Origin: Lachnospiraceae bacterium NK4A144 | GTDB lineage: Bacteria; Bacillota; Clostridia; Lachnospirales; Lachnospiraceae | Assembly: GCA_000424365.1 (NCBI GenBank) | Contig: AUJT01000030.1 | Coordinates: forward strand, 1,139 to 45,827 | Length of the DNA: 44,689 bases | Direction of reading: 5' to 3' | In this document: positions 2,525-24,151 of the stretch, piece by piece | How the letters are laid out: each line of letters begins with the position of its first letter | Position numbering within the stretch: position 1 is the first letter of the stretch | Notes under the pieces: generated by a model | What the model saw: the letters and a program-made list of their open reading frames with translations, nothing else | Databases searched by the model: none | What the model was told of the DNA's origin: nothing | Position numbers and translations under genes: made by a program

Positions 2525-2555
2525 AAAGTATGGGTGGTTATTGATAATACAGTAG

Positions 2556-2597
2556 CGTTAAAAATCCCTGAAGTACGGTAACTTCGGGGATTTTAAC
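2556..2597. terminator. Hairpin (probably bidirectional) terminator
   Basis: Long imperfect stem: GTTAAAAATCCCTGAAGT pairs with ACTTCGGGGATTTTAAC around the short loop ACGGTA. The stem carries an A-tract on the left and a T-tract on the right. It separates the LysM gene from the TRAP transporter operon. Confidence 0.65.
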
Positions 2598-2625
2598 GTA
2601 CTTAAAAATAAAGAGAGGGTTGTAT

Positions 2626-3651: not shown

Positions 3652-3692
3652 ATCGTAAAATACGCGAAAAAAGGGGAAAGAAGGGAAAAAGA

Positions 3693-4223: not shown

Positions 4224-4224
4224 T

Positions 4225-5523: not shown

Positions 5524-5587
5524 AAATACCGTTTTTCTCTATCAAGCATAAACGTAAAGAAAAGCAAAGATAGAAGTGGAGCAAAAA

Positions 5588-5971: not shown

Positions 5972-6184
5972 AAGATGCCATGTTTAACAGTGATATGCGA
6001 TGACGTACATAGAAAAAATGTACAGACTAGTTTTTCATTTACCTGTGTTGAGGATCCATCGATAAATTTTGCAACAGGATATGTAAATCTCAATTAGTTC
6101 TTGTATTCATTTGATATAATGATGATGTCAGGGGTAAAAATTTGCCGCGGTGAACCGTATATTGTCCGAAAGAGGGGGAACACT

Positions 6185-7258: not shown

Positions 7259-9973
7259 ATGTTCAAAAAGGAGAAGTACCTGTTAGGTACATTTTTTTTG
7301 ACTGCATTACTTGCGGCACATGGGAGTGTGCCGGTTTTTGCAGCAGAAAAAGCAGCATCATTTAATGAAGCCGGTGGGGCACTTTGCATCAATTATGAGG
7401 ATACAGTCAGTTACAACGGAAACCGACATATCGTTAATGGCGCAAAAAAATCATCCGGTAAGACAGATGATATCAAAGTGTCATTGTCCGGAAATCTTGC
7501 AGATTACGTCAGTGTCAGCTACAAATATCAGAATAATAAGCTTTCTAAGGCTGTATCAAAAAAAGATGCCACTGTATCTGTAAGAGTTAAGGCAAAGAAA
7601 AATGCTGATGACGATCAGAAAGCTGCTATTAAGAAGATTAATAAGCAGCTCAGCAAGAAAGCAAATAAACTACATGTGATCGTAGAGCCTGTTGATATGA
7701 CTCAGGTTGACAGCAGCAATATAAATGTAAAACTGAGTAAAGATGCGAAAAAAATATCCTCAGTAAAAGTAAAGCTTGGTAAGACCCTTAATCTTACAGA
7801 AAAGGATTACACAGTAAAAGAACTTAATGACGGCAGATATATGCTCGAATTTAAGGGAAATTACAAGGGAACTTACAGCAATCAGTATTGCAAAGTAAGC
7901 TTTGAGGCTAATGGCGGAAGCAGTGTAGCGCCTCAATCCGTCATCAAGGGCAGACAGGCAGACAGTAAAGTGTCAACTTCAAAGGAAGGATACGACTTTG
8001 ATGGCTGGTACTCTGATAAAGACCTGACAAATAAGTACGATTTTAATGCACCTGTAGAAAGTGATATGACACTTTATGCAAAGTGGACAGAGGAATCGGT
8101 TCAGTCAAAATTTGCAAAGGCAAAGCTCTATGACTTAAATTGGAGCCAGTTTGTGCTCGTAAAGTTTGAGGATGGATATTCCACAGAAAACTGCAGAGTC
8201 GAAGTTGACGGCAGAGATATCACAGATTCATTAACAAAAGTTACTGATGACGGAAGCATTGTCAAGTGGGAACTCGAATATCTGAATCCCGGAAAGATCA
8301 CTATCAACAGTGAGAGCGAAAAGCAGGAAATCGAACTTAGCCCGAAGTACGATGGAGTAAGTACTCCTGAGGGAAAAACAGATACAAAACCGGGCTATAT
8401 GATAGCTCATGGACCTGTATCAGTATGGGATTATTATCTTACTAACTATGACACTGATGGAAATCTCCGAACAGAGCCATCAAAAACAACATTTTCCTTA
8501 GGTGACAGCAAAGATAACAGTGGTATCCCTGCATATTATTCGCCGGATACAGAGCTAAAGGAAAATGGCGAAGTAGTTATCATGTTCAATGCGAACACAG
8601 AAAATGAGAAAGCGTGGTTCGAGGCTCTAGATGCTGATTCACCTAAATCGCTTCAGCTGGTGAGCTTTGACGAGCGACTTGATCTTCTGAATGACTCACT
8701 TGAATATGAGAAAAAAGAAGATGTACCTCATGGAAACTCTTACATTAATGAGATCATCATCAAACTCGGACAGAAAAATCTCAATCGTGCAGGAAGATTT
8801 TATGTTAGAGTTAAGTCCGGTAAGGGCACAGTTATCGTGCCGATTCACATCGTAAATGAGGAGGCGCCTGAACTTACACTTGCAGGTTCGGGTACGGTGA
8901 TCGCCGGTCAGGATCTTACTTTCAAGATCAAAAAAATGATAAACGGTATTAAGAATCCGACCTATGCGGCAGAATTAAAGCTCCCTGACGGAACTGTAAA
9001 AGAGCTGGAAATGCTTACCGACTGGTACCAGATATCCGACAGACTTTATCTCTACAATAGCAAGGACAAGGACGGAAACGACAGAAACAAGCTGACCCGG
9101 GATGGAGAATATGTATTAACAGTTCATTCAGATGGCTACAAGGATATGAGTGCAGTATTTTATGTTGGCACATCTGATGCGATCGGATCGGTTACAGAGG
9201 TAGATTCAGTATCGAGTGCAACACGAGGAAGCGGATCATCAGGAAACACTTCGGGTGGTCAGCAGATATCTGCAGATCTTAAGTTTGACGCGGATCTCCT
9301 TATCAACGCAATGTTGTTGGAGAGGGCAGGCATAAAATGTGCCACAGCAACAGCTATCGTAGACAGATGGGAAAAAATGGCTGACTGGGACTCTGTATGT
9401 GCAAATGATACAAAAAAAGGCGGCTTCGAATGGAGCGATTATATCGACGCAGTCGCAAGAGCAAGGAAGAATGGTAAATACCTGACATTTGCTGAATATG
9501 CTGATACAAATGCCGACAATGAAAAGGAAACAGTTCCTCATGGAGTAAAAGCTGTTCTTGAGGACAATCTTCTTGGAGATATACAGGACGATTTCAATAA
9601 AAAAAGTGAGGCAGATCCGGACGGAAATATTCCTGAAGTCAGTGAAGAGTACTATTACGGTATACTAACCTTTGACTATGGCGAGAGTAAAGAATGGCTT
9701 GCAGCCGTGAATAAGATCACAGTCGATGGCGAGAAGGGGCAGTTTGTTTGCGAAAAGTCCGATAAATATTCGCCGGATAGGAATGGATTTTACGTTAATA
9801 GTGAGTCAAAAGGCTTTAATTTGAGTAAGTCATGTTTTGATTTCTCAAGCTACGGTAAGAAGGAATATACGATCACCATAGAAGCGGAAGGCTATAAGCC
9901 GGCTGTATTAAAGCTCTCGATCAATATCGGATACTACGGACAAAATGAATACACTGTAGAAATTGAAAAGTAA
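7259..9973 (+). CDS. Large secreted multidomain surface protein with InlB B-repeat (Listeria-Bacteroides repeat) module
   Basis: A 904-aa protein with a signal peptide (MFKKEKY, hydrophobic core, cut near VFAAEK). Residues about 25-205 are a Lys-rich beta module that recurs at the C-terminus of the secreted protein at 24221-25549. Residues about 212-275 are one InlB B-repeat (Listeria-Bacteroides) unit (VSFEANGG, GYDFDGWYSD, DMTLYAKW). Later parts are beta-rich, and a Ser/Gly linker (GSGSSGNTSGG) falls near residue 658. The end (about 795-904) resembles the DUF1533/haemoglobin-interacting type domain, ending with TITIEAEGYKPAVLKLSI. There is no LPxTG motif or obvious membrane anchor. An adhesion or wall-associated role is likely; the ligand is unknown. 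A terminator follows. Confidence 0.78.
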   Translation: MFKKEKYLLGTFFLTALLAAHGSVPVFAAEKAASFNEAGGALCINYEDTVSYNGNRHIVNGAKKSSGKTDDIKVSLSGNLADYVSVSYKYQNNKLSKAVSKKDATVSVRVKAKKNADDDQKAAIKKINKQLSKKANKLHVIVEPVDMTQVDSSNINVKLSKDAKKISSVKVKLGKTLNLTEKDYTVKELNDGRYMLEFKGNYKGTYSNQYCKVSFEANGGSSVAPQSVIKGRQADSKVSTSKEGYDFDGWYSDKDLTNKYDFNAPVESDMTLYAKWTEESVQSKFAKAKLYDLNWSQFVLVKFEDGYSTENCRVEVDGRDITDSLTKVTDDGSIVKWELEYLNPGKITINSESEKQEIELSPKYDGVSTPEGKTDTKPGYMIAHGPVSVWDYYLTNYDTDGNLRTEPSKTTFSLGDSKDNSGIPAYYSPDTELKENGEVVIMFNANTENEKAWFEALDADSPKSLQLVSFDERLDLLNDSLEYEKKEDVPHGNSYINEIIIKLGQKNLNRAGRFYVRVKSGKGTVIVPIHIVNEEAPELTLAGSGTVIAGQDLTFKIKKMINGIKNPTYAAELKLPDGTVKELEMLTDWYQISDRLYLYNSKDKDGNDRNKLTRDGEYVLTVHSDGYKDMSAVFYVGTSDAIGSVTEVDSVSSATRGSGSSGNTSGGQQISADLKFDADLLINAMLLERAGIKCATATAIVDRWEKMADWDSVCANDTKKGGFEWSDYIDAVARARKNGKYLTFAEYADTNADNEKETVPHGVKAVLEDNLLGDIQDDFNKKSEADPDGNIPEVSEEYYYGILTFDYGESKEWLAAVNKITVDGEKGQFVCEKSDKYSPDRNGFYVNSESKGFNLSKSCFDFSSYGKKEYTITIEAEGYKPAVLKLSINIGYYGQNEYTVEIEK

Positions 9974-10132: not shown

Positions 10133-10223
10133 AACCTCGTTAAAGGGTAACGGCAAAAGGAAAAGCTGATATGGGTTTAGAGTTATTGTAAATGAGGTGT
10201 AACTTGAAGGGAGGGTGATAGTA

Positions 10224-11222
10224 ATGATGTTATATGTTTGTACTCAAGGAGCACGTATTTCTATTCACGACAATCAATTTATGGTTTCGTGTCCTGGTGA
10301 GGTGGAAAAGAGTGTCCCGTTGGGGATGACAGAAAGTGTAGAGATTTTTGGTAATGTTCAGATTACAACTCAGGCAGTTTCTGCGTGTATGTATGAAAGA
10401 ATACCTATCATATACTATACTTATGCTGGAAAATATAGAGGACGAATAGTATCTCCGGGAATGATGAAACCAGAAAATATTATGAGACAGTATAAATTTT
10501 ATGAAAACAATGATCTTCGCATACAGTTTGCAAGGAAAATTATTGAAGCAAAAATACACAATCAATTAGTAGTATTAAGAAGATATCTAAAGGATACATG
10601 TACTGAAAAGATAAAAAGTAACATGAATCAGATTAAGTATATGAAGAAACAAGTAGAAAAAGCATTAACGATTCCGCAATTAATGGGAATTGAGGGTAAC
10701 GCGGCAAGACATTATTTTAAATTACTTGGATCAATTCCTGAAGAAGGCTTTTCTTTTGAGCATAGGACAAGAAGACCACCATTAGATCCGGTTAATGCCG
10801 CATTAAGTACAGGGTATTCTATTTTGATGAGTGAAATTTGTGGTAAGTTGGAAGGACATGGATTGATGGCAGAAATAGGAGTAATGCACAGCATGAGTAG
10901 TGGAAGACCATCATTGGCATGTGATCTTATGGAGGAATGGCGCCCGGTGATAGTGGATTCTACAGTAATAGGAATGGTTTTAGGAAAAGAACTAAAGGAA
11001 GAAGATTTTGTTGTGACAAAAGATGCTGTATTGCTTGGAAAAACGGGATTGAGTAAGTTGTTGCGAAAAATACAGAATAAAATGAATGCTTCTTGTCAAT
11101 ATCTTAAAGGAACGGATAACATGCAAACTTTCCAACAAGCATTATCACATCAGATACATGATTTTAGAATCATGTTGGAAAGTCAGAATTTAAGGAAATA
11201 TAGTCCGGTAAAAATCAGGTGA
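10224..11222 (+). CDS. cas1: CRISPR adaptation integrase Cas1 (type VI-A locus)
   Basis: A 332-aa Cas1. The metal-binding triad is visible: Glu in GIEGNAARHYF, His in EIGVMHSMSSGRPSLA, and acidic residues in CDLMEEWRPVIVD. The N-terminal beta domain and C-terminal all-alpha domain have normal length. Cas1 with Cas2 integrates new spacers at the leader end of arrays. ATG at 10224 is chosen because AAGGGAGGG ends 9 bases before it; an upstream in-frame GTG at 10215 overlaps that SD. It is followed 4 bases later by cas2, and both sit immediately upstream of the array 1 leader. There is no fused reverse transcriptase or Cas4, so spacer capture directly from RNA is not suggested. Confidence 0.96.
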   Translation: MMLYVCTQGARISIHDNQFMVSCPGEVEKSVPLGMTESVEIFGNVQITTQAVSACMYERIPIIYYTYAGKYRGRIVSPGMMKPENIMRQYKFYENNDLRIQFARKIIEAKIHNQLVVLRRYLKDTCTEKIKSNMNQIKYMKKQVEKALTIPQLMGIEGNAARHYFKLLGSIPEEGFSFEHRTRRPPLDPVNAALSTGYSILMSEICGKLEGHGLMAEIGVMHSMSSGRPSLACDLMEEWRPVIVDSTVIGMVLGKELKEEDFVVTKDAVLLGKTGLSKLLRKIQNKMNASCQYLKGTDNMQTFQQALSHQIHDFRIMLESQNLRKYSPVKIR

Positions 11223-11226
11223 TCAT

Positions 11227-11511
11227 ATGAATGATTCTAAAATATACGCATTGGTGACGTATGACGTAACTGATGATAAGTTACGTAAGAAACTAGCAAA
11301 ACATATATGTAAATATGGTGTTCGAGTACAGAAATCAGCATTTGAAGTATGGATTTCAAAAAGGAATTATAAGCAGATGCAGAAAGGAATTAATGGTCTT
11401 ATTGATGAACAAAAGGATAGTGTTCGAATATATCGTTTGCCAATAGATTGCGGTATATCATTATATGGAAAAAATGTAGTAATAGATAAGGCATCGGTAC
11501 AGATATTGTAA
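11227..11511 (+). CDS. cas2: CRISPR adaptation protein Cas2
   Basis: A 94-aa Cas2 with the ferredoxin-like fold signature: YALVTYDVTDDKLRKKLAK at the N-terminus, where the Asp after the first strand is the conserved metal-site residue, then VRVQKSAFEVWIS and a C-terminal strand segment with SVRIYRLP. It forms the central dimer of the Cas1-Cas2 integration complex. It is 4 bases after cas1 and needs no strong SD of its own, suggesting coupling. It ends about 210 bases before the first repeat of array 1. No terminator was seen between cas2 and the array, so some transcripts may run into the leader. Confidence 0.96.
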   Translation: MNDSKIYALVTYDVTDDKLRKKLAKHICKYGVRVQKSAFEVWISKRNYKQMQKGINGLIDEQKDSVRIYRLPIDCGISLYGKNVVIDKASVQIL

Positions 11512-11542: not shown

Positions 11543-11722
11543 ACGTGAGTCTGTGGTAGTATTATAAACAATGATGGAATAAAGTGTTTTTTGCGCCGCA
11601 CGGCATGAATTCAGGGGTTAGCTTGGTTTTGTGTATAAATAAATGTTCTACATATTTATTTTGTTTTTTGCGCCGCAAAATGCAACTGAAAGCCGCATCT
11701 AGAGCACCCTGTAGAAGACAGG
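11543..11722 (+). promoter_or_regulatory. Leader of CRISPR array 1
   Basis: This region is alignable to the leader of array 2 at 23624-23793. Shared elements, in order: GTGAGT/TCTGTGGTA, a first GCGCCGCA at 11593-11600, a second GCGCCGCA at 11670-11677 followed by AAATGC, and GAGCACCCTG with AGACAGG directly before the first repeat. The spacing from the first GCGCCGCA to the first repeat is 130 bases here and 131 in array 2, although the intervening sequence differs. The leader position fixes the array orientation as plus. It should contain the array promoter and the Cas1-Cas2 integration signal. Confidence 0.8.
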
Positions 11723-12169
11723 GTTTTGAGAATAGCCCGACATAGAGGGCAATAGACAACGGTTTTACCATTGTCAAACTCGCCTGCTGTCGTGTTTTGA
11801 GAATAGCCCGACATAGAGGGCAATAGACTTTTGCTTCGTCACGGATGGACTTCACAATGGCAACAACGTTTTGAGAATAGCCCGACATAGAGGGCAATAG
11901 ACCTTCATAAATCCAAGATACGGATGCATGATTACGGTTTTGAGAATAGCCCGACATAGAGGGCAATAGACTTTTAAAGGGATGATAAGGAAGCCGTATA
12001 CTCGTTTTGAGAATAGCCCGACATAGAGGGCAATAGACCTAAGCTGGTTTTTCCATGTTGACACCTTGCCTAGTTGTTTTGAGAATAGCCCGACATAGAG
12101 GGCAATAGACTTCTTCTCTTGTCATTCTTCTACCTCTAAAATCTCAGTTTTGAGAATAGCCCGACATAG
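11723..12169 (+). CRISPR. CRISPR array 1, type VI-A, 7 repeats and 6 spacers
   Basis: Six intact 35-base repeats start at 11723, 11794, 11868, 11937, 12004 and 12076. A seventh at 12147 keeps only its first 23 bases and marks the leader-distal end. The repeat reads GTTTTGAGAATAGCCC, then loop GACATAGA, then GGGCAATAGAC; GCCC/GGGC forms the short crRNA stem. Spacers are 36, 39, 34, 32, 37 and 36 bases. The repeat resembles those remembered for Lachnospiraceae and Eubacterium rectale Cas13a, with the repeat forming the 5' handle of the crRNA. Apparent minus-strand reading frames with repeated CPLCRAILKT-like units are artefacts of the repeats. Confidence 0.98.
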
Positions 12170-12457: not shown

Positions 12458-15400
12458 ATGAAAATATCAAAAGTCGATCATACCAGAATGGCGGTTGCTA
12501 AAGGTAATCAACACAGGAGAGATGAGATTAGTGGGATTCTCTATAAGGATCCGACAAAGACAGGAAGTATAGATTTTGATGAACGATTCAAAAAACTGAA
12601 TTGTTCGGCGAAGATACTTTATCATGTATTCAATGGAATTGCTGAGGGAAGCAATAAATACAAAAATATTGTTGATAAAGTAAATAACAATTTAGATAGG
12701 GTCTTATTTACAGGTAAGAGCTATGATCGAAAATCTATCATAGACATAGATACTGTTCTTAGAAATGTTGAGAAAATTAATGCATTTGATCGAATTTCAA
12801 CAGAGGAAAGAGAACAAATAATTGACGATTTGTTAGAAATACAATTGAGGAAGGGGTTAAGGAAAGGAAAAGCTGGATTAAGAGAGGTATTACTAATTGG
12901 TGCTGGTGTAATAGTTAGAACCGATAAGAAGCAGGAAATAGCTGATTTTCTGGAGATTTTAGATGAAGATTTCAATAAGACGAATCAGGCTAAGAACATA
13001 AAATTGTCTATTGAGAATCAGGGGTTGGTGGTCTCGCCTGTATCAAGGGGAGAGGAACGGATTTTTGATGTCAGTGGCGCACAAAAGGGAAAAAGCAGCA
13101 AAAAAGCGCAGGAGAAAGAGGCACTATCTGCATTTCTGTTAGATTATGCTGATCTTGATAAGAATGTCAGGTTTGAGTATTTACGTAAAATTAGAAGACT
13201 GATAAATCTATATTTCTATGTCAAAAATGATGATGTTATGTCTTTAACTGAAATTCCGGCAGAAGTGAATCTGGAAAAAGATTTTGATATCTGGAGAGAT
13301 CACGAACAAAGAAAGGAAGAGAATGGAGATTTTGTTGGATGTCCGGACATACTTTTGGCAGATCGTGATGTGAAGAAAAGTAACAGTAAGCAGGTAAAAA
13401 TTGCAGAGAGGCAATTAAGGGAGTCAATACGTGAAAAAAATATAAAACGATATAGATTTAGCATAAAAACGATTGAAAAGGATGATGGAACATACTTTTT
13501 TGCAAATAAGCAGATAAGTGTATTTTGGATTCATCGCATTGAAAATGCTGTAGAACGTATATTAGGATCTATTAATGATAAAAAACTGTATAGATTACGT
13601 TTAGGATATCTAGGAGAAAAAGTATGGAAGGACATACTCAATTTTCTCAGCATAAAATACATTGCAGTAGGCAAGGCAGTATTCAATTTTGCAATGGATG
13701 ATCTGCAGGAGAAGGATAGAGATATAGAACCCGGCAAGATATCAGAAAATGCAGTAAATGGATTGACTTCGTTTGATTATGAGCAAATAAAGGCAGATGA
13801 GATGCTGCAGAGAGAAGTTGCTGTTAATGTAGCATTCGCAGCAAATAATCTTGCTAGAGTAACTGTAGATATTCCGCAAAATGGAGAAAAAGAGGATATC
13901 CTTCTTTGGAATAAAAGTGACATAAAAAAATACAAAAAGAATTCAAAGAAAGGTATTCTGAAATCTATACTTCAGTTTTTTGGTGGTGCTTCAACTTGGA
14001 ATATGAAAATGTTTGAGATTGCATATCATGATCAGCCAGGTGATTACGAAGAAAACTACCTATATGACATTATTCAGATCATTTACTCGCTCAGAAATAA
14101 GAGCTTTCATTTCAAGACATATGATCATGGGGATAAGAATTGGAATAGAGAACTGATAGGAAAGATGATTGAGCATGATGCTGAAAGAGTCATTTCTGTT
14201 GAGAGGGAAAAGTTTCATTCCAATAACCTGCCGATGTTTTATAAAGACGCTGATCTAAAGAAAATATTGGATCTCTTGTATAGCGATTATGCAGGACGTG
14301 CATCTCAGGTTCCGGCATTTAACACTGTCTTGGTTCGAAAGAACTTTCCGGAATTTCTTAGGAAAGATATGGGCTACAAGGTTCATTTTAACAATCCTGA
14401 AGTAGAGAATCAGTGGCACAGTGCGGTGTATTACCTATATAAAGAGATTTATTACAATCTATTTTTGAGAGATAAAGAGGTAAAGAATCTTTTTTATACT
14501 TCATTAAAAAATATAAGAAGTGAAGTTTCGGACAAAAAACAAAAGTTAGCTTCAGATGATTTTGCATCCAGGTGTGAAGAAATAGAGGATAGAAGTCTTC
14601 CGGAAATTTGTCAGATAATAATGACAGAATACAATGCGCAGAACTTTGGTAATAGAAAAGTTAAATCTCAGCGTGTTATTGAAAAAAATAAGGATATTTT
14701 CAGACATTATAAAATGCTTTTGATAAAGACTTTAGCAGGTGCTTTTTCTCTTTATTTGAAGCAGGAAAGATTTGCATTTATTGGTAAGGCAACACCTATA
14801 CCATACGAAACAACCGATGTTAAGAATTTTTTGCCTGAATGGAAATCCGGAATGTATGCATCGTTTGTAGAGGAGATAAAGAATAATCTTGATCTTCAAG
14901 AATGGTATATCGTCGGACGATTCCTTAATGGGAGGATGCTCAATCAATTGGCAGGAAGCCTGCGGTCATACATACAGTATGCGGAAGATATAGAACGTCG
15001 TGCTGCAGAAAATAGGAATAAGCTTTTCTCCAAGCCTGATGAAAAGATTGAAGCATGTAAAAAAGCGGTCAGAGTGCTTGATTTGTGTATAAAAATTTCA
15101 ACTAGAATATCTGCGGAATTTACTGACTATTTTGATAGTGAAGATGATTATGCAGATTATCTTGAAAAATATCTCAAGTATCAGGATGATGCCATTAAGG
15201 AATTGTCAGGATCTTCGTATGCTGCGTTGGATCATTTTTGCAACAAGGATGATCTGAAATTTGATATCTATGTAAATGCCGGACAGAAGCCTATCTTACA
15301 GAGAAATATCGTGATGGCAAAGCTTTTTGGACCAGATAACATTTTGTCTGAAGTTATGGAAAAGGTAACAGAAAGTGCCATACGAGAATACTATGACTAT

Positions 15401-16462
15401 CTGAAGAAAGTTTCAGGATATCGGGTAAGGGGAAAATGTAGTACAGAGAAAGAACAGGAAGATCTGCTAAAGTTCCAAAGATTGAAAAACGCAGTAGAAT
15501 TCCGGGATGTTACTGAATATGCTGAGGTTATTAATGAGCTTTTAGGACAGTTGATAAGTTGGTCATATCTTAGGGAGAGGGATCTATTATATTTCCAGCT
15601 GGGATTCCATTACATGTGTCTGAAAAACAAATCTTTCAAACCGGCAGAATATGTGGATATTCGTAGAAATAATGGTACGATTATACATAATGCGATACTT
15701 TACCAGATTGTTTCGATGTATATTAATGGACTGGATTTCTATAGTTGTGATAAAGAAGGGAAAACGCTCAAACCAATTGAAACAGGAAAGGGCGTAGGAA
15801 GTAAGATAGGACAATTTATAAAGTATTCCCAGTATTTATACAATGATCCGTCATATAAGCTTGAGATCTATAATGCAGGATTAGAAGTTTTTGAAAACAT
15901 TGATGAACATGATAATATTACAGATCTTAGAAAGTATGTGGATCATTTTAAGTATTATGCATATGGTAATAAAATGAGCCTGCTTGATCTGTATAGTGAA
16001 TTCTTCGATCGTTTCTTTACATATGATATGAAGTATCAGAAGAATGTAGTGAATGTGTTGGAGAATATCCTTTTAAGGCATTTTGTAATTTTCTATCCGA
16101 AGTTTGGATCAGGAAAAAAAGATGTTGGAATTAGGGATTGTAAAAAAGAAAGAGCTCAGATTGAAATAAGTGAGCAGAGCCTCACATCGGAAGACTTCAT
16201 GTTTAAGCTTGACGACAAAGCAGGAGAAGAAGCAAAGAAGTTTCCGGCAAGGGATGAACGTTATCTCCAGACAATAGCCAAGTTGCTCTATTATCCTAAC
16301 GAAATTGAGGATATGAACAGATTCATGAAGAAAGGAGAAACGATAAATAAAAAAGTTCAGTTTAATAGAAAAAAGAAGATAACCAGGAAACAAAAGAATA
16401 ATTCATCAAACGAGGTATTGTCTTCAACTATGGGTTATTTATTTAAGAACATTAAATTGTAA
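12458..16462 (+). CDS. cas13a: CRISPR RNA-guided RNase Cas13a (C2c2), type VI-A effector
   Basis: A 1334-aa single effector that processes pre-crRNA and, when paired with target RNA, cuts RNA through a composite active site of two HEPN domains. HEPN1 is clear: YSLRNKSFHF, with R546 and H551. HEPN2 is LRKYVDHFKYYA, with R1158 and H1163, followed by YSEFFDRFFTYDMKYQKN. As I remember it, the Lachnospiraceae NK4A179 Cas13a is colinear, including the YINGL and FDRFFTYD blocks, but has RN at the start of HEPN2 where this protein has RK. The start has SD AGGGGG 6 bases upstream. It follows the array 1 terminator and its own promoter box, and leads a series with three unknown genes. The identification is firm. 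Confidence 0.97.
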   Translation: MKISKVDHTRMAVAKGNQHRRDEISGILYKDPTKTGSIDFDERFKKLNCSAKILYHVFNGIAEGSNKYKNIVDKVNNNLDRVLFTGKSYDRKSIIDIDTVLRNVEKINAFDRISTEEREQIIDDLLEIQLRKGLRKGKAGLREVLLIGAGVIVRTDKKQEIADFLEILDEDFNKTNQAKNIKLSIENQGLVVSPVSRGEERIFDVSGAQKGKSSKKAQEKEALSAFLLDYADLDKNVRFEYLRKIRRLINLYFYVKNDDVMSLTEIPAEVNLEKDFDIWRDHEQRKEENGDFVGCPDILLADRDVKKSNSKQVKIAERQLRESIREKNIKRYRFSIKTIEKDDGTYFFANKQISVFWIHRIENAVERILGSINDKKLYRLRLGYLGEKVWKDILNFLSIKYIAVGKAVFNFAMDDLQEKDRDIEPGKISENAVNGLTSFDYEQIKADEMLQREVAVNVAFAANNLARVTVDIPQNGEKEDILLWNKSDIKKYKKNSKKGILKSILQFFGGASTWNMKMFEIAYHDQPGDYEENYLYDIIQIIYSLRNKSFHFKTYDHGDKNWNRELIGKMIEHDAERVISVEREKFHSNNLPMFYKDADLKKILDLLYSDYAGRASQVPAFNTVLVRKNFPEFLRKDMGYKVHFNNPEVENQWHSAVYYLYKEIYYNLFLRDKEVKNLFYTSLKNIRSEVSDKKQKLASDDFASRCEEIEDRSLPEICQIIMTEYNAQNFGNRKVKSQRVIEKNKDIFRHYKMLLIKTLAGAFSLYLKQERFAFIGKATPIPYETTDVKNFLPEWKSGMYASFVEEIKNNLDLQEWYIVGRFLNGRMLNQLAGSLRSYIQYAEDIERRAAENRNKLFSKPDEKIEACKKAVRVLDLCIKISTRISAEFTDYFDSEDDYADYLEKYLKYQDDAIKELSGSSYAALDHFCNKDDLKFDIYVNAGQKPILQRNIVMAKLFGPDNILSEVMEKVTESAIREYYDYLKKVSGYRVRGKCSTEKEQEDLLKFQRLKNAVEFRDVTEYAEVINELLGQLISWSYLRERDLLYFQLGFHYMCLKNKSFKPAEYVDIRRNNGTIIHNAILYQIVSMYINGLDFYSCDKEGKTLKPIETGKGVGSKIGQFIKYSQYLYNDPSYKLEIYNAGLEVFENIDEHDNITDLRKYVDHFKYYAYGNKMSLLDLYSEFFDRFFTYDMKYQKNVVNVLENILLRHFVIFYPKFGSGKKDVGIRDCKKERAQIEISEQSLTSEDFMFKLDDKAGEEAKKFPARDERYLQTIAKLLYYPNEIEDMNRFMKKGETINKKVQFNRKKKITRKQKNNSSNEVLSSTMGYLFKNIKL

Positions 16463-16496
16463 AAAAGATTCGTTGTAGATAATTGATAGGTAAAAG

Positions 16497-16523
16497 CTGA
16501 CCGGAGCCTTTGGCTCCGGACAG
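16497..16523 (+). promoter_or_regulatory. Intergenic hairpin between cas13a and the 573-aa gene
   Basis: CTGACCGGAGCC pairs with GGCTCCGGACAG around a TTT loop, with one A-A mismatch in a 12-bp stem. No T-run follows (TTGTATATAAG), so it is unlikely to be a full terminator. It may tune the expression ratio between cas13a and the downstream genes, or act as an RNA processing or stability element. Confidence 0.7.
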
Positions 16524-16543
16524 TTGTATATAAGAGGATATTA

Positions 16544-18265
16544 ATGACTGAAAATGATTTTTGTTGGAAGTCAGTTTTTTCTGTGGAAAGCGAAATCGAA
16601 TATGATGAGTATGCATATGGCAGAAGAGCTGTAGAAGGCGAGAATACATATGATTACATTACTAAGGAAGAAAGACCGGAACTTAATGACGAATATGTAG
16701 CGAGACGTTGCATTTTCGGTAAAAAAGCAGGAAAAATATCCAGGTCGGATTTTAGTAGGATAAGATCTGCGTTGGATCATGCGATGATAAATAATACACA
16801 TACAGCATTTGCCAGATTTATCACTGAAAATCTGACGAGACTCAATCACAAAGAACATTTTCTGAATGTGACACGTGCATATTCTAAACCTGATTCTGAA
16901 AAATTGATACAACCGAGATACTGGCAGTCGCCTGTAGTTCCAAAGGATAAACAAATATATTATAGCAAGAATGCGATTAAAAAATGGTGTGGTTACGAAG
17001 ATGATATTCCGCCTCGTTCTGTGATAGTTCAGATGTGTCTATTGTGGGGGACTGATCATGAAGAGGCAGATCATATCCTTCGCAGTTCAGGATACGCGGC
17101 GCTTAGTCCTGTTGTACTTCGAGATCTTATCTATATGTATTATCTGGATCATCAGGATTTGCAAAAAAATGAGTTGATATGGGAAGTAAAAAAGCAGTTG
17201 GATCACTTCGATTTGACAAATAGAAATTATGATACAAATCCTTTTGATGTAGGGGGCAGCGTAAATGATCATATCTGTGAACTGAGCGAGCATATAGCGA
17301 AGGCTCATTATATTTATGAGAGGGCTAAGGAAGGACCATTGCAAAATGTAATTCGGGATATTTTGGGAGATACACCTGCCCTTTATTCTGAAATGGCATT
17401 TCCTCAGCTAGCATCTATAAACAGGTGTGCTTGCAATTCGCTTTCTTCATATCAAAAAAATATTTTTGATACTGACATAGCTATATATGCAGATGAAAAG
17501 GACACAAGAGGTAAATCAGACCGTATCCTTGTTGAGGGCGCATCTTCGAAATGGTATGAATTGAAGAAACGCGATGCTAATAATGTCAAAATTTCTGAAA
17601 AGCTGAGTATACTCAATACTATTCTTAAATTTAATAGTGTTTTTTGGGAAGAATGTTACCTTGATGGAAATATAAAACAATCGAGCGGAAAGCGATCTGA
17701 GGCAGGAAAAATTCTTTATGGTCGCGACAACGGAAAAGAAAATGTCGGAGTTTCAAAATTGGAATTGGTGCGGTATATGATAGCTGCAGGTCAGGAACAA
17801 AATCTGGGAAATTACCTGGTGAGTTCAGGATTTTGGAGAAAAAATCATATGCTGTCATTTATACAAGGCAATGATATAGCGCTTGATGAGATGGATGAAT
17901 TGGATCTCTTAGACTATATTCTGATATATGCATGGGGATTTAGGGAAAATATCATTAAAAAGAACAGTAATGTGAATTCTTTGGATGAAAAGACTAGAAA
18001 AGTGCAGTTTCCGTTTATAAAGTTACTCATGGCAATTGCAAGAGATATCCAGATACTTATATGTTCAGCACATGAAAAAACAGTCGATGAGTCATCTCGA
18101 AATGCAGCAAAGAAGATAGATATATTGGGAAATTATATTCCTTTTCAGATTCATCTTCAGAGAACTAAAAAAGATGGTGGAAGAGTGGTAATGGATACAT
18201 TGTGTGCTGATTGGATTGCGGATTATGAATGGTACATTGATCTTGAGAAAGGAACACTTGGATGA
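16544..18265 (+). CDS. Cas13a-associated protein A: unknown, with helix-turn-helix-like segments
   Basis: A 573-aa soluble protein with no signal peptide or membrane segment and no known family that I can name. Residues about 153-210 (VIVQMCLLWGTDHEEADHIL, then SSGYAALSPVVLRDLIYMYY) resemble the XRE-like helical domain in which residues such as L..A...L..(A/S)GY..LSP..RD.I..Y recur. A second stretch near residues 400-435 (SKLELVRYMIAAGQEQNLGN, YLVSSGFWRK) repeats the pattern. This suggests DNA, RNA or protein binding. The start has AGAGG 6 bases upstream. It is 81 bases after cas13a across a hairpin and overlaps gene B by ATGA, so B is coupled to it. Function unknown; a regulator or adaptor for B and C is inference. 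Confidence 0.7.
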   Translation: MTENDFCWKSVFSVESEIEYDEYAYGRRAVEGENTYDYITKEERPELNDEYVARRCIFGKKAGKISRSDFSRIRSALDHAMINNTHTAFARFITENLTRLNHKEHFLNVTRAYSKPDSEKLIQPRYWQSPVVPKDKQIYYSKNAIKKWCGYEDDIPPRSVIVQMCLLWGTDHEEADHILRSSGYAALSPVVLRDLIYMYYLDHQDLQKNELIWEVKKQLDHFDLTNRNYDTNPFDVGGSVNDHICELSEHIAKAHYIYERAKEGPLQNVIRDILGDTPALYSEMAFPQLASINRCACNSLSSYQKNIFDTDIAIYADEKDTRGKSDRILVEGASSKWYELKKRDANNVKISEKLSILNTILKFNSVFWEECYLDGNIKQSSGKRSEAGKILYGRDNGKENVGVSKLELVRYMIAAGQEQNLGNYLVSSGFWRKNHMLSFIQGNDIALDEMDELDLLDYILIYAWGFRENIIKKNSNVNSLDEKTRKVQFPFIKLLMAIARDIQILICSAHEKTVDESSRNAAKKIDILGNYIPFQIHLQRTKKDGGRVVMDTLCADWIADYEWYIDLEKGTLG

Positions 18266-20244
18266 GCAGTGATGAAAGGATATTTAAAAAATTTTTGGAA
18301 AAAGGATCGATTTCTGAGCAGAAAAAGATGCTTTTAGAAGAAAAGAAATGTTCGGATAAACTAACTGCACTGCTTGGGAATTACTGCATACCGATAGACA
18401 ATATTTCAGAGTCAGACGGAAAAATATATGCGGTCTATAAGCTTCCAAAAAATGTTAAACCTTTGTCCGAAATCATTAATGATGTATCCTTTTCTGATTG
18501 TACGATGAGAGTACGTTTGCTTCTCATAAAGAGAATTCTGGAACTCGTGTGTGCTTTTCACGAAAAAAAATGGTATTGTCTCAGTATTTCACCGGGAATG
18601 CTCATGGTTGAAGATTTTGATATACCGATGGGAAATGTCGGAAAAGTATTGATATATGATTTCAGAAATCCTGTTCCGTTCGAGTCAGTAAATGAAAGAC
18701 ATAATTTTAACGTTTCAAATAAATACACTTCACCGGAGCTGCTCATCCATTCAAGATATGACGAGTCGAAATCTGTGAGTGAAAAATCAGATTTGTATTC
18801 TGTTGCAAAAATTGCGGAAACAATAATAGGAGATTTTAACAGTATTATTGCAAATGGAAATTTGATACTACTTGCAATGCTTAGAGTTTTTATCAGTACA
18901 GGGAAAAGTCCGGAACCTGAGTATCGGTTTGAATCGTCGGAAAATATGCTTTCAGTATTTGAAAATTTGATCAAAGAAAATTGTTTTTTTGAAAAAAACG
19001 ATTATACATCTATGTTTCATCAGGCGTATGACAATTTTTTTGAATGGCAGGAATGTTTGATATCACCGGATCACTTGGATAAAAATATGTTCGAGGCAGC
19101 TTTATCAAATCTTGAGGATCAGCTGCTTAGGGTTGATATTGATAAGTATAGAGCAGAGTACTTCTATAAGCTTCTCCGAGAGTTGTCTAATAAATATAAA
19201 AATACAATTACTGATGAACAAAAGGTAAGGTTGGCAATACTTGGAATCAGAGCGAAAAATAATCTGGGAAAAAGTTTTGATGCATTGGAAATATATGAGT
19301 CAGTACGTGATTTAGAAACTATGTTGGAGGAGATGGCAGAGCTTAGTCCTGTCATTGCTTCGACATATATGGATTGCTACCGATATGCAGATGCGCAGAA
19401 AGTGGCGGAAGAAAACATTATCAGGCTTCATAATAGTAATATTCGTATGGAGAAAAAAAGAATACTGCTTGGAAGGTCATATAGTTCAAAAGGGTGCAGC
19501 ATGGGGTTTCAGCATATTCTTGGTGCGGATGAGTCATTTGAACAGGCTTTATATTTCTTTAACGAAAAGGACAATTTTTGGAAAGAAATATTTGAGAGCA
19601 GAAATTTAGAGGACAGCGATAGACTTATAAAGTCTTTACGAAGCAATACGCATATTACGCTGTTTCATTACATGCAATATGCATGTGAAACAAGGAGAAA
19701 GGAATTATATGGAGCACTTTCAGACAAATATTTTATAGGTAAAGAATGGACAGAAAGACTCAAAGCATATATAAGCAACAAGGATATATGGAAAAACTAT
19801 TATGAGATATATATTCTGCTAAAGGGTATTTATTGCTTCTATCCAGAAGTCATGTGTTCGTCTGCGTTTTATGATGAAATCCAAAAAATGTACGATCTTG
19901 AATTTGAAAAGGAAAAAATGTTTTACCCATTGAGTCTGATAGAACTGTATCTTGCTCTGATAGAGATAAAAGTTAATGGGAGTCTGACGGAGAATGCCGA
20001 GAAGTTGTTTAAACAGGCATTGACACATGACAATGAAGTCAAAAAAGGAAATATGAATATTCAGACCGCCATTTGGTATCGAATATATGCACTGTATAAC
20101 GATGTAAAAGATGAAACTGATAAGAATAAAAGGCTTTTAAAACGGCTTATGATTCTTTGCCGACGATTTGGTTGGGCGGATATGTATAGTGCTTTGGAGA
20201 AGGATGGGAAGTTAATTGATTTTTTGAGATTTGAGGTATGTTAA
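18262..20244 (+). CDS. Cas13a-associated protein B: pseudokinase-like domain fused to TPR-like helical region
   Basis: A 660-aa protein. Residues about 35-190 follow the protein-kinase fold from hinge to C-lobe: KIYAVYKLPKNVKPLSEII (hinge), H100 then CLSISPGML at 106-114 where HRD-x-K-P-x-N would be, D133-F134 at the DFG position, YTSPELL at 155-161 (APE), and SEKSDLYSVAKI (helix F). The catalytic Asp is Ser, the loop Asn is Met, and the N-lobe Lys strand is not recognisable, so it is probably an inactive pseudokinase or scaffold. Residues about 250-660 are helical pairs like tetratricopeptide repeats. Its ATG overlaps the gene A stop, and gene C starts at the next base after its own stop. 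A signalling or partner-binding role is inference. Confidence 0.7.
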   Translation: MSSDERIFKKFLEKGSISEQKKMLLEEKKCSDKLTALLGNYCIPIDNISESDGKIYAVYKLPKNVKPLSEIINDVSFSDCTMRVRLLLIKRILELVCAFHEKKWYCLSISPGMLMVEDFDIPMGNVGKVLIYDFRNPVPFESVNERHNFNVSNKYTSPELLIHSRYDESKSVSEKSDLYSVAKIAETIIGDFNSIIANGNLILLAMLRVFISTGKSPEPEYRFESSENMLSVFENLIKENCFFEKNDYTSMFHQAYDNFFEWQECLISPDHLDKNMFEAALSNLEDQLLRVDIDKYRAEYFYKLLRELSNKYKNTITDEQKVRLAILGIRAKNNLGKSFDALEIYESVRDLETMLEEMAELSPVIASTYMDCYRYADAQKVAEENIIRLHNSNIRMEKKRILLGRSYSSKGCSMGFQHILGADESFEQALYFFNEKDNFWKEIFESRNLEDSDRLIKSLRSNTHITLFHYMQYACETRRKELYGALSDKYFIGKEWTERLKAYISNKDIWKNYYEIYILLKGIYCFYPEVMCSSAFYDEIQKMYDLEFEKEKMFYPLSLIELYLALIEIKVNGSLTENAEKLFKQALTHDNEVKKGNMNIQTAIWYRIYALYNDVKDETDKNKRLLKRLMILCRRFGWADMYSALEKDGKLIDFLRFEVC

Positions 20245-22422
20245 ATGATAACACTTGCATTAGATGAAAATGGCAAATTTGAAGATGCTTTTTCTAAAAA
20301 AAATGAAAAACCGATAATGATTGCGGGGATAATCTATGATGACAAGGGGAAAGAGTATGATGCTGAGAATGAACGCTACAGGATATCCAGTTATCTGCGA
20401 GCAGTATGTGACAGTTTGGGTGCGAAATACCCTCAGGATCTACATTCAAATAGTAATGGAAATAAGGCGACTGTTGGGAAAGTAAAATGTAAAATTGGTG
20501 AAACACTAAAGGAATTCTTGAGAGAAGGAACCTATGAAAAAAAGGAATTGCCGACAAAGAACGGTTATTTAAATAAGAGATCTGGAAAATATGTAATGTT
20601 TGCAGAACTCAGGAGTAGTCAGGGAGTTAAAAAGCGTGTTAGTGGTTGGAATGACAATGATCTGACTCAGGATGAAAAGGTCAGCAATCTGTACCTTCAT
20701 ATGGCAGAAAATGCCGTTGTCAGAATGCTCTTCCATAATCCTATATATGAAGATGTAACAGATGTAAATCTCTATTTTCCCACGCGAAAAGTTGTTCTGA
20801 AAGATAGAGATAGAGAATACGATAAACAAGATTTCAAAATATATGGTGATAAGGACAAGTGCGAAGCAGAAAGCGGGAGATTGGTGCATTATGATATCGT
20901 GTCATCGGATTTTTACCGTACGATAATGGAGAACGAATGTACAAGAATTAATAAAAAGCAATTAAATGTTCATTATATGAACACAAGCCCAATTTCGTAC
21001 TGGGAGAAAAATGAAAAATATAATACATTTTTATATTTGGCTGACATAGTTTGTTCTATGCTGGATTATTACAAAAAGGGTTCGAGTCCGGCAGAGTGGA
21101 TGGATTCTTTTGCCGAATGGGGAAACAAATATTTTGGTGATGATCAGATAATCTTATTTGGGTATGATGATATAGATGACAAATACATGGAGGCTGTAGA
21201 TGCAGTAGGACAGGGAGAGTATTTTCATGCGCTGGATATTATATATGATGCGGAATGTAGTGGAAGTGAATTTGAGAAGCACTACAAAGATTATTGGTTT
21301 CCAAAGCTTATAAAAAAGATACGAATAACAGCAACTGTGGATAATTTATGCAGATCGATCTCAGATCTGGAGAGTTTTACATATCGAAGTAATCTTGATC
21401 AGCAGAAACTTTTGTGGATTTTTGAGGAAATCAAAGCTATCGTCGATAAGGGAGATTTTGGAAAGAAATATCATACAGATCAGGTTATGTTTGATATGTG
21501 TAATGCCGGTATTGCTGTGTACAATCATATCGGAGATTTTGGGACTGCAAAGGAATACTATGATGAGTGCATGAAACACACTGGGGATGTGGATCTGGTA
21601 AAGATACTTCGTGCATCAAATAAAATGGTGGTCTTTCTTGACGATGCTTTTAGGTATGGTGACGCGACAGAACGTGCCAGGAAGAATGTTGAATACCAAA
21701 AAGCTTTGCACGATATAAAGAGTGAGATTTGTCCGGAAAAGAAAGATGAAGACTTGAACTATGCCATATCGCTCAGTCAATTTGGACAGGCGCTTGCGTG
21801 TGAAAAAAATTCTGATGCAGAGAGTGTTTTCCTAGAGTCGTTGCGGCATATGAGGAAAGGGACTGCCAATTATCAGATTACTCTTTCATATTTACTCCAT
21901 TTTTATCTGGATATGGGAATGACAGATTCTTATCGAGAAAAAACAAAGGACTATTTTGGAAGTGAAAAACCAAAGGAACAGCTGAAAGAATTGCTGAAGT
22001 TATCGGGAAAGGATGATAGTATAGTTACTTTCAAATTTGCAATGTATGTCTATTTACGTGCACTTTGGGTATTACAGGAACCGCTTACTGATTTTATCAG
22101 AACAAGATTAGAGGACATACGTGAGACTCTTGTAAAGAAGAAAATGAGTGAACATATGGTTGGACATCCGTGGGAGTTGATTTATAAATATCTGGCATTT
22201 CTTTTTTATCGTGATGGAAATTGTGAAGCTGCTGAAAAATATATTCATAAAAGTGAAGAGTGCTTGGAAACACAAGGACTGACTATAGATGCGATTATTC
22301 ATAATGGTAAGTATGAATATGCAGAATTGTCAGGTGACGAGGAGATGATGGCAAGAGAGAAAGCGTACTTTGATGAAAAAGGGATAGATAGAAAAAATGT
22401 TTGTACTTTTATGTATCATTGA
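20245..22422 (+). CDS. Cas13a-associated protein C: DUF3800/RNase H-like N-terminus fused to helical (TPR-like) repeats
   Basis: A 725-aa protein. The N-terminus, ITLALDENGKFED, then KPIMIAGIIYDDKG, matches the start of DUF3800 proteins (strand, D-E-S/N-G, then a G-x-I/V-I/V strand), an RNase H-like fold thought to be nucleolytic. D7 and E8 are candidate metal ligands. YPQDLHSNS and the late YLADIVCSMLDYY (about residues 270-285) fit the family's inner His and terminal Asp helix. Residues about 300-725 form helical pairs resembling tetratricopeptide repeats. Its ATG directly follows the gene B stop codon, and a strong terminator ends the operon. Nuclease activity is inferred. The match is by pattern only; another RNase H-like family is possible. 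Confidence 0.65.
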   Translation: MITLALDENGKFEDAFSKKNEKPIMIAGIIYDDKGKEYDAENERYRISSYLRAVCDSLGAKYPQDLHSNSNGNKATVGKVKCKIGETLKEFLREGTYEKKELPTKNGYLNKRSGKYVMFAELRSSQGVKKRVSGWNDNDLTQDEKVSNLYLHMAENAVVRMLFHNPIYEDVTDVNLYFPTRKVVLKDRDREYDKQDFKIYGDKDKCEAESGRLVHYDIVSSDFYRTIMENECTRINKKQLNVHYMNTSPISYWEKNEKYNTFLYLADIVCSMLDYYKKGSSPAEWMDSFAEWGNKYFGDDQIILFGYDDIDDKYMEAVDAVGQGEYFHALDIIYDAECSGSEFEKHYKDYWFPKLIKKIRITATVDNLCRSISDLESFTYRSNLDQQKLLWIFEEIKAIVDKGDFGKKYHTDQVMFDMCNAGIAVYNHIGDFGTAKEYYDECMKHTGDVDLVKILRASNKMVVFLDDAFRYGDATERARKNVEYQKALHDIKSEICPEKKDEDLNYAISLSQFGQALACEKNSDAESVFLESLRHMRKGTANYQITLSYLLHFYLDMGMTDSYREKTKDYFGSEKPKEQLKELLKLSGKDDSIVTFKFAMYVYLRALWVLQEPLTDFIRTRLEDIRETLVKKKMSEHMVGHPWELIYKYLAFLFYRDGNCEAAEKYIHKSEECLETQGLTIDAIIHNGKYEYAELSGDEEMMAREKAYFDEKGIDRKNVCTFMYH

Positions 22423-22447
22423 TGTTTAATAAGATTTGACCGAGGAG

Positions 22448-22491
22448 TGACAGGTAATCGCCGGTATATCTGGTATTACCTGTCATTTTTT
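22448..22491 (+). terminator. Terminator of the cas13a-A-B-C transcription unit
   Basis: TGACAGGTAAT (22448-22458) pairs perfectly with ATTACCTGTCA (22475-22485), followed by six T. It lies 25 bases after the gene C stop. No other terminator occurs from cas13a to here, supporting one transcription unit. Confidence 0.92.
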
Positions 22492-23623: not shown

Positions 23624-23793
23624 TGTGAGTTTCTGTGGTAAACTATAAAAGTACAAGCTTTTGCGCCGCACCGCATAAATAGCGGATTTATGACCATTAT
23701 TTGGTGAAAAAAATGGTGTACACCTGTGTTTTTTTGTTTTGCGCCGCAAAATGCGCCACGGAACCGCATGCAGAGCACCCTGCAAGAGACAGG
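23624..23793 (+). promoter_or_regulatory. Leader of CRISPR array 2
   Basis: Same architecture as the array 1 leader: GTGAGT..TCTGTGGTA, GCGCCGCA at 23663-23670, a second GCGCCGCA at 23741-23748 followed by AAATGC, then GAGCACCCTG and GACAGG just before the first repeat. The two GCGCCGCA boxes are 78 bases apart here and 77 in array 1. The sequence between boxes has diverged, so the boxes are probably functional. Confidence 0.8.
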
Positions 23794-24031
23794 GTTATGA
23801 AAACAGCCCGACATAGAGGGCAATAGACAAGTTCTACCTGTTTGTCAGATGTAAACTTTGCATCGTTATGAAAACAGCCCGACATAGAGGGTAATAGACC
23901 TTTTTGAGCGGAGTTTTTCCGCGTCAGATGCACGGGGTTATGAAAACAGCCCGACATAGAGGGCAATAGACATAAAGACCAAAAACAGGTCATCTGCATA
24001 CTGTGTTATGAAAACAGCCCGATATAGAGGG
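23794..24031 (+). CRISPR. CRISPR array 2, type VI-A, 4 repeats and 3 spacers
   Basis: Repeats start at 23794, 23865, 23937 and 24005. The repeat reads GTTATGAAAACAGCCC, then GACATAGA, then GGGCAATAGAC. It differs from array 1 at positions 4, 8 and 11 only, leaving the stem-loop and 3' end unchanged. The second repeat has one change (GGGTAATAGAC), and the last (24005-24031) has one loop change and loses its final bases. Spacers are 36, 37 and 33 bases. The leader lies on the left, so transcription is plus, as in array 1. No cas genes follow; the array presumably uses the same Cas13a. Confidence 0.97.
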
Positions 24032-24151
24032 TGTGAGAGATATAGTTCTCGTCACAGTGCAGAAAATGACCTATTATGTGCCGAAAAACAAAATGAAAAA
24101 AGAATGGAAAGGCGTATTTAATGAAATGCTGATCTGTTGATTTGAATTAAC
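24032..24151. other. Non-coding tail of array 2
   Basis: About 120 bases between the degenerate last repeat and the terminator at 24152. I see no gene, further repeat or clear promoter in it. Confidence 0.5.

What the first reader, a model, noticed from the sequence alone, without database searches (positions are those of the whole stretch)
16544..22491. Undescribed three-gene module co-operonic with cas13a
Seen: directly after cas13a lie three genes (573, 660, 725 aa) with ATGA overlap and zero spacing, no terminator from cas13a until 22448, and CRISPR arrays on both sides. Known: type VI-A loci as I know them contain cas13a with or without cas1-cas2 and no such accessories. Inference: proteins A (HTH-like), B (pseudokinase plus helical repeats) and C (DUF3800/RNase H-like plus helical repeats) form a complex that regulates or extends Cas13a immunity, or is a separate defence system sharing its regulation.
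Basis: partly seen in the sequence, partly recalled or inferred. Interest (0 to 1): 0.9.

Follow-up and report, generated by a model that had tools for sequence, protein, structure and literature searches.

The report
Cas13a operon with RNase-H-like TPR partner
A bacterium's RNA-cutting CRISPR system (Cas13a) is encoded together with a second predicted nuclease that recurs beside Cas13 and other RNA-sensing CRISPR effectors, suggesting that finding foreign RNA may switch on a second weapon besides Cas13 itself.

Summary
The three genes are real, intact and on one strand with cas13a (cas13a 12458-16462, A 16544-18265, B 18262-20244, C 20245-22422). C is the important one: an N-terminal RNase-H-like, DUF3800-type domain with invariant D7, E8, H67, R181 and D267, then a TPR superhelix. 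C homologues were found in 5 of 397 genomes of the same family, all five in a cas13a locus (cas13a: 7 of 397). In a pattern scan of 84,980 species, 7 of 16 C loci hold cas13a and 3 hold type III-D genes (two organisms); a class-level sample added one beside Cas13d. A TPR-DUF3800 protein is already published beside Cas12a2 (V-A2) and noted in VI-F, so this extends a known kind of accessory; the passages I read do not name VI-A, VI-D or III-D for it. B is a pseudokinase fused to the same repeat type as C. A has a short segment shared with proteins of kinase gene clusters. In what I searched, A-B-C recur together only in Clostridium aminophilum, on the other side of cas13a. Best reading: C is an ancillary nuclease docked by its TPR domain to the RNA-recognising effector, with A-B a lineage-specific regulator. 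No activity is shown.

The parts
10215..11222 (+). cas1 (335 aa)
   Evidence: Pfam Cas_Cas1 E 9e-89
11227..11511 (+). cas2 (94 aa)
   Evidence: Pfam CRISPR_Cas2 E 1e-19
11723..12169 (+). CRISPR array 1, 7 repeats (last one degenerate)
12458..16462 (+). cas13a (1334 aa)
   Evidence: NF038188 984 bits, cut-off 150; PADLOC Cas13a E 5e-186
16495..16525 (+). stable hairpin between cas13a and A, no T tract
   Evidence: -22.8 kcal/mol for the 81-nt gap, z -3.3; sequence
16544..18265 (+). gene A (573 aa): a segment (about residues 136-214) shared with proteins of kinase gene clusters; rest without known family
   Evidence: no Pfam match better than E 0.04 and no PADLOC or NCBIfam match; 28% identity to L019 A; segment matches
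18262..20244 (+). gene B (660 aa): pseudokinase plus TPR-type repeat domain
   Evidence: weak Pkinase E 0.0017, under the cut-off; HRD Asp and following Asn lost; repeat half homologous to C
18988..20082 (+). part of B (residues 243-607) homologous to the TPR half of C
   Evidence: hhalign probability 99.1, E 1.6e-18
20245..22422 (+). gene C (725 aa): RNase-H-like DUF3800-type domain plus TPR superhelix
   Evidence: AlphaFold pLDDT 87.6, pTM 0.84; Foldseek; recurs beside cas13a/cas13d/III-D
20245..21165 (+). N-terminal alpha/beta nuclease-like domain of C (residues 1-307)
   Evidence: model pLDDT 83; best PDB match RNase HII, Foldseek E 1.5e-3
21169..22401 (+). TPR superhelix of C (residues 309-719)
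   Evidence: all-helical in model; PDB matches KLC TPR, Rap, NprR
22449..22491 (+). terminator-like hairpin with T tract
   Evidence: -32.2 kcal/mol, z -6.6; sequence
23794..24040 (+). CRISPR array 2, 4 repeats of a variant repeat

Best explanation
C is an ancillary nuclease of RNA-recognising CRISPR effectors. Shown here: C has a predicted RNase-H-like domain with invariant acidic residues fused to a TPR superhelix, and it recurs, on the same strand, in cas13a, cas13d and type III-D loci, with exchange between VI-A and III-D partners. Inferred: the TPR half docks on Cas13a (or on the RNA ends it makes) when the crRNA finds its target, which releases the nuclease domain to cut a second nucleic acid (RNA, RNA:DNA hybrid or transcribed DNA), so that recognition of phage RNA has an output beyond Cas13a's own RNA cleavage. 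In this lineage B, a dead kinase carrying the same kind of repeat domain as C, and A, which looks derived from a kinase gene cluster, are inferred to hold C in check or to scaffold it on Cas13a.
For: C homologues in 5 of 397 family genomes, all five in a cas13a locus; cas13a in 7 of 397. Hypergeometric P 2.6e-10 with the window; without it, 4 of 4 C genomes fall in 6 cas13a genomes of 396, P 1.5e-8. Species-wide pattern scan: 7 of 16 C loci hold cas13a, 3 of 16 (two organisms) hold III-D genes (cas13a of L029 shown). Class sample: a C homologue 220 bases upstream of cas13d and on its strand, Cas13d E 2e-226. The C-cas13a gap is -4 to 55 bases in five of eight distinct cas13a loci. Gene order differs (cas13a-A-B-C here, A-B-C-cas13a in L019, C-cas13a in L034) while strand is kept. 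D7, E8 and H67 are invariant in 16 of 16 rows that cover them, R181 in 17 of 17, D267 in 18 of 18. Fold. Shared repeat domain of B and C. The III-D-linked C of L022 and the cas13a-linked C of L030 are sisters at 100/100.
Against: No activity, binding or expression data. The RNase-H assignment is weak: one relevant PDB match, E 1.5e-3, TM 0.30 on the query; Pfam DUF3800 matches 0 of 14 members; hhalign to five true DUF3800 proteins is not significant. 2 of 7 family cas13a loci, and the one further class-level locus, lack C. C also lies beside AbiP2, Mokosh-like and CorA-like genes with no cas gene seen, so it does not need Cas13a. The Cas13a and C distance matrices agree only weakly over the eight pairs (r 0.33, Mantel p 0.059). 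The docking step is analogy.
Confidence: 0.45

Rival explanations
1. C acts on the CRISPR RNA itself: it trims, matures or degrades crRNA or Cas13a-bound RNA, and so tunes or resets the effector rather than attacking a second target.
For: Proposed as one option for the Cas12a2-linked TPR-DUF3800 protein, citing association of DUF3800 with putative ncRNAs (PMC10910872, passage seen). RNase-H-like fold.
Against: Cas13a and Cas12a2 process their own pre-crRNA and III-D uses Cas6 (both recalled), so a common crRNA step is not obvious. No DUF3800-associated RNA family among the four gathering-level Rfam matches in the window and six related loci. 3 of 8 cas13a loci found by cas13a search lack C.
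Confidence: 0.15
2. A-B-C, or C alone, is an independent defence module that merely lives in the same island and shares transcription with cas13a.
For: C homologues beside an AbiP2 RT (L024), Mokosh-like genes (L082) and a CorA-like gene (L031) with no cas gene seen. An A-C-terminus/B-like pair in a genome without C or cas13a (L053).
Against: Presence on one strand in eight distinct cas13a loci plus cas13d and III-D is far above chance. The C-cas13a gap is very small in five of the eight, on either side of cas13a. Partner exchange with III-D means recruitment happened more than once.
Confidence: 0.2
3. A-B-C restrains Cas13a or protects the host: A and pseudokinase B regulate, and C removes Cas13a-generated RNA debris or limits collateral damage.
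For: Kinase-cluster ancestry of A and B. WYL regulators beside C and cas13a in other loci. Hairpin in the cas13a-A gap.
Against: A and B are absent from six of the eight C-cas13a loci, so they cannot explain the conserved C. A pure regulator would not need a conserved nuclease-type acidic site.
Confidence: 0.15

Closest known systems
TPR-DUF3800 protein of a Cas12a2 (V-A2) sub-branch (PMC10910872, passages seen) and DUF3800 nuclease of some VI-F and V-A2 loci (PMC12669027, passages seen)
   Same: RNase-H-like DUF3800-type domain plus TPR; encoded beside a CRISPR effector that recognises RNA; an extra TPR protein can accompany it.
   Different: Here the partner is Cas13a, with Cas13d and III-D in relatives, and the extra genes are a pseudokinase-TPR protein and protein A, not UvrD. 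Sequence homology to the published proteins was not tested because their sequences were not at hand.
TPR-CHAT of type III-E (Craspase; title and start of abstract of PMC9729208 seen in the listing)
   Same: A TPR-fused enzyme paired with an RNA-guided effector and activated by target RNA; III-E likely originates from III-D2 (PMC12669027, figure legend).
   Different: No CHAT protease was found in C; it has a nuclease-like domain. Docking of C is not shown.
Csx28/Csx27 of VI-B and WYL proteins of VI-D (recalled, and named in PMC12669027 passages)
   Same: Accessory genes beside a Cas13 gene.
   Different: C was not compared with them directly; PADLOC gives C no match and its model is an alpha/beta domain plus TPR. 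WYL genes occur separately in other C-cas13a loci.
Kinase gene clusters of the same family (HTH/FHA/Ser-Thr kinase)
   Same: A's segment and B's kinase-like part resemble these genes.
   Different: B's kinase has lost its catalytic Asp and is fused to C's repeat type; A has a long extra part; the pair sits in a CRISPR operon.

Membership tests
Type VI-A CRISPR-Cas | Cas13a effector over the curated cut-off | tested here: met
   NF038188 984 bits, cut-off 150
Type VI-A CRISPR-Cas | CRISPR array next to the effector | tested here: met
   7 repeats at 11723-12169 and 4 from 23794; arrays also in L019, L026, L028, L029, L030 and L034 of the seven other cas13a-C loci, none found in L020
DUF3800 (PF12686) | match to the Pfam profile | tested here: not met
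   0 of 14 C members at E<=1; in the own genome the profile matches contig C7, not C (E<=0.1)
DUF3800 (PF12686) | N-terminal DExG strand and Asp in the last helix (pattern recalled, and seen in L055/L056) | tested here: met
   D7, E8 invariant in 16 of 16 covering rows, G10 in 15 of 16, D267 in 18 of 18; strand and helix placement
DUF3800 / RNase H superfamily | RNase H fold | tested here: inconclusive
   best PDB match RNase HII 1eke, E 1.5e-3, probability 0.97, TM 0.30/0.40; hhalign to true DUF3800 not significant
TPR-DUF3800 accessory of V-A2/VI-F | same domain pair beside an RNA-recognising CRISPR effector | tested here: met
   the nuclease half with the reserve of the row above
TPR-DUF3800 accessory of V-A2/VI-F | sequence homology to the published proteins | not tested
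Active protein kinase (gene B) | HRD catalytic Asp and following Asn; DFG | tested here: not met
   HRD to CLS (window) and FLS (L019), Asn to Met/Cys; DFG to DFR (window, Asp kept) and FHE (L019); L019 B lacks the N-lobe. Six related kinases as control keep the Asp and Asn (one as HGD); five of six keep DFG, one has DFN
TPR-CHAT (Craspase) | CHAT caspase-like protease domain | tested here: not met
   no such family among Pfam matches of C or of the 14 aligned members
HTH regulator (gene A) | Pfam HTH match | tested here: not met
   only partial matches next to or just after the HTH of other proteins

The most novel reading that the evidence does not exclude
Cas13a systems of this family (Lachnospiraceae, judging by C. 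aminophilum) are two-stage immune systems: Cas13a is the RNA sensor, and each locus carries an exchangeable second effector from a pool shared with type III-D, either a TPR-docked RNase-H-like nuclease (C; 5 of 7 family cas13a loci) or a CorA-like membrane protein (the other 2 of 7), switched on without any Cas10 and so by direct contact or RNA products rather than by a cyclic nucleotide.
Probability: 0.3. Interest if true: 0.85.

Novelty: new variant of a known kind. Interest (0 to 1): 0.62.

Why it matters
Cas13a is usually treated as a stand-alone effector whose collateral RNA cleavage drives dormancy. If C is an effector triggered by target-bound Cas13a, natural VI-A immunity has a second output that heterologous tests with Cas13a alone would have missed. 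Recurrence with Cas12a2 and VI-F (published) and with VI-A, VI-D and III-D (here) points to one TPR-nuclease accessory able to work with unrelated RNA-recognising effectors. That makes a testable question: what common signal do they share? Several host loci come from named records (C. aminophilum DSM 10710, Lachnospiraceae NK4A179, Kineothrix sp. MSJ-39, Eubacteriaceae CHKCI004).

Tried and rejected
Considered and set aside. (1) Chance ORFs: rejected, all three genes have long homologues. (2) C restricted to cas13a: rejected, it also sits beside cas13d, III-D, AbiP2, Mokosh-like and CorA-like genes. (3) A-B-C as one conserved unit: rejected, A and B recur with C in one other locus only. (4) An RNA family linked to DUF3800: none among the gathering-level Rfam matches in the window and six loci. 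(5) C on phages, plasmids or viral contigs: no match to the window's C (the viral scans are pattern-limited) nor to three relatives' C in plasmids; A in viral contigs none; B in plasmids none. (6) PDB sequence matches: none for the A or C profiles at E<=1; for B only eukaryotic death-associated kinases at E 0.0028 or worse. (7) Spacer targets: array 1 against phages gave one poor match (E 0.5); two spacer-derived patterns gave none in viral contigs. The other spacers had no scan of their own. (8) The G612 match (L083) was dropped as a partial, repeat-only match. (9) The G706 Cas13a match below the cut-off was not followed. (10) The partial A matches in G288 and G096 were not fetched (8 of 10 partial matches fetched). 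(11) B was not surveyed in genomes on its own. (12) The fewest changes between 'cas13a' and 'other' on the C tree are 4; not tested against shuffled labels. (13) My ORF script skipped cas13a of L029 because of a masked stretch before it; one search shows it at 2445-6374.

Literature: ten searches of the open-access library. Among those naming DUF3800 (one search listed 10 of 11 papers) the only papers on CRISPR loci are PMC10910872 and PMC12669027; the passages seen do not name VI-A, VI-D or III-D for it. Supplements and figures were not readable, so a mention there is possible.
Full report
What is there. On the + strand the window holds cas1, cas2, a 7-repeat array, cas13a, then A, B and C, a strong terminator-like hairpin, and a second 4-repeat array with a variant repeat. 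A-B overlap by ATGA and C follows B without a gap. G+C of cas13a, A, B and C is alike (0.35-0.37). Co-transcription is plausible but not shown.

What C is. A 14-sequence alignment gave a confident model (pLDDT 87.6, pTM 0.84): an alpha/beta domain (residues 1-307), then an all-helical superhelix. The whole model finds TPR proteins in the PDB: kinesin light chain, Rap and NprR. The first domain folded alone has RNase HII as its best PDB match, at modest significance (E 1.5e-3); its best match among viral models is an uncharacterised siphovirus protein (E 1.8e-5). D7, E8 and H67 are invariant in 16 of 16 rows that cover them, R181 in 17 of 17 and D267 in 18 of 18, including members not beside cas13a; E43 is kept in 15 of 16. 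The pattern 'DExG ... LAD' is that of DUF3800 (recalled, and seen in L055/L056), but the Pfam profile matches 0 of 14 members, and profile comparison with five true DUF3800 proteins is not significant, although it places the same motif. So I call it DUF3800-type, not a Pfam DUF3800 member.

Where C occurs. In 397 family genomes C has 5 matches and cas13a 7; all five C genes are in the cas13a locus. In the two others (L017, L018) cas13a is followed by a CorA-like gene. A pattern scan of 84,980 species gave 16 C loci. Seven hold cas13a: L019, L020, L026, L028, L029, L030, L034 (L029). Three hold type III-D genes by PADLOC: L021 and L027 from one MAG, and L022. L024 holds an AbiP2 reverse transcriptase and L031 a CorA-like gene. 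L023, L025, L032 and L033 show no defence gene that I recognised beside C; all four run to contig ends, and by profile I tested one neighbour each of L025 and L032 and none of L023 and L033. L019, L028, L029 and L034 are the same loci as L006, L009, L007 and L008 found by genome search, so with the window there are eight distinct cas13a-C loci. C directly adjoins cas13a in five of the eight: L019, L020, L026, L028 and L034 (gaps -4 to 55 bases). In the other three something lies between: A and B in the window, a sigma-like gene in L030, an RT-Cas1 gene and an array in L029/L007. A 391-genome class sample had four genomes with matches: the window, a C homologue beside Cas13d (L081), one beside Mokosh-like and kinase genes (L082), and a repeat-only match that I dropped. 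A 301-genome class search for Cas13a found one further locus over the cut-off, which lacks C, and one match under the cut-off, not followed.

History. In the C tree the window and C. aminophilum are sisters (100/100), and L026 and L028 are sisters (100/100). The III-D-linked C of Ca. Fimousia (L022) is sister to the cas13a-linked C of CHKCI004 (L030) at 100/100. C of L020 and L030 is 50% identical while their Cas13a proteins are 29% identical; overall the two distance matrices agree weakly (r 0.33, Mantel p 0.059). C therefore changed partners, and VI-A and III-D exchanged it. RT-Cas1 modules were likewise suggested to have been captured by VI-A, probably from III-D (PMC6753606, passages seen). 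Deep branches of the tree are unresolved, and L081, L082 and L032 are long branches whose place is unsure.

A and B. B's second half is homologous to C's TPR half (hhalign 99.1%, E 1.6e-18). Its first half is kinase-like (E 0.0017, under the Pfam cut-off) but has lost the HRD Asp and the following Asn in both known copies; DFG reads DFR here and FHE in L019. Six related kinases aligned beside it keep the Asp and Asn, and five of the six keep DFG. A has two full-length matches in 397 genomes (window and G293) and 10 partial ones in nine further genomes. Of the eight stretches around partial matches that I fetched, six have a Pkinase gene near the match, one an FHA/ABC gene, and one (L053) a B-like repeat protein in a genome with neither C nor cas13a. 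The shared segment of A lies mostly behind the HTH in the one such protein that I tested (L049), so an HTH in A is doubtful. A-B looks like a kinase-cluster pair recruited into this Cas13a lineage (inference).

How it probably works. Shown: linkage, predicted domains, invariant residues, partner exchange. Inferred: the TPR half reads a state common to Cas13a, Cas13d, III-D and (published) Cas12a2, namely a target-bound crRNA complex or the RNA ends it makes, and the RNase-H-like domain then cuts a second nucleic acid. The TPR-CHAT protease of III-E is a precedent for a TPR-fused enzyme paired with an RNA-guided effector (PMC9729208, title and start of abstract in a listing). B, having the same repeat type, could compete with C or pair with it; A's role is open. 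Rivals (crRNA processing, independent module, restraint of Cas13a) are listed with their tests.

Known or new. [quoted passage not shown] The extension to VI-A, VI-D and III-D, the partner exchange, the shared repeat domain of B, and the CorA-like alternative in C-less Cas13a loci were not seen in the ten library searches listed. CorA homologues are described for III-B and III-D. I therefore file it as a new variant of a known kind.

Noticed in passing
L017:12971-14566 and L018:5882-7570: Both family cas13a loci without C have, directly downstream and on the same strand, a CorA-like membrane protein (PADLOC CorA E 5e-15 and 2e-10), a family described for type III-B/III-D.
   Followed up: partly
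L030:12357-13952: The gene after C in the CHKCI004 cas13a locus encodes a TIR-domain protein (Pfam TIR_2 E 2.6e-11); a sigma-70-region-4-like protein (8989-9717, E 2e-7) sits between cas13a and C.
   Followed up: no
L081:6529-11635: A C homologue lies 220 bases upstream of cas13d on the same strand, with two arrays, cas2 and a short Cas1 ORF (208 aa) nearby.
   Followed up: partly
L024:8272-12202: A C homologue follows an AbiP2-type reverse transcriptase that is split over two overlapping ORFs.
   Followed up: no
L082:2646-11225: A C homologue ends a row of kinase-like and Mokosh-like (MkoA) defence genes.
   Followed up: no
window 16495-16525: Strong hairpin without T tract in the cas13a-A gap; possible attenuator or processing site.
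   Followed up: partly
window 11659-11759 and 23730-23830: The starts of the two arrays, including the sequence before the first repeat, are 83% alike over 101 bases, as if one array was copied from the other.
   Followed up: no
window 20245-22422, last residues: Most C proteins end in a conserved aromatic tail: of the 14 rows of A2, 6 end in MYH, 4 in MYR, 1 in MYD and 1 in MFR, which may be a docking or activation element.
   Followed up: no
L053:4828-7022: A genome without cas13a or C holds an A-C-terminus-like ORF cut by the contig end, followed by a B-like repeat protein.
   Followed up: no
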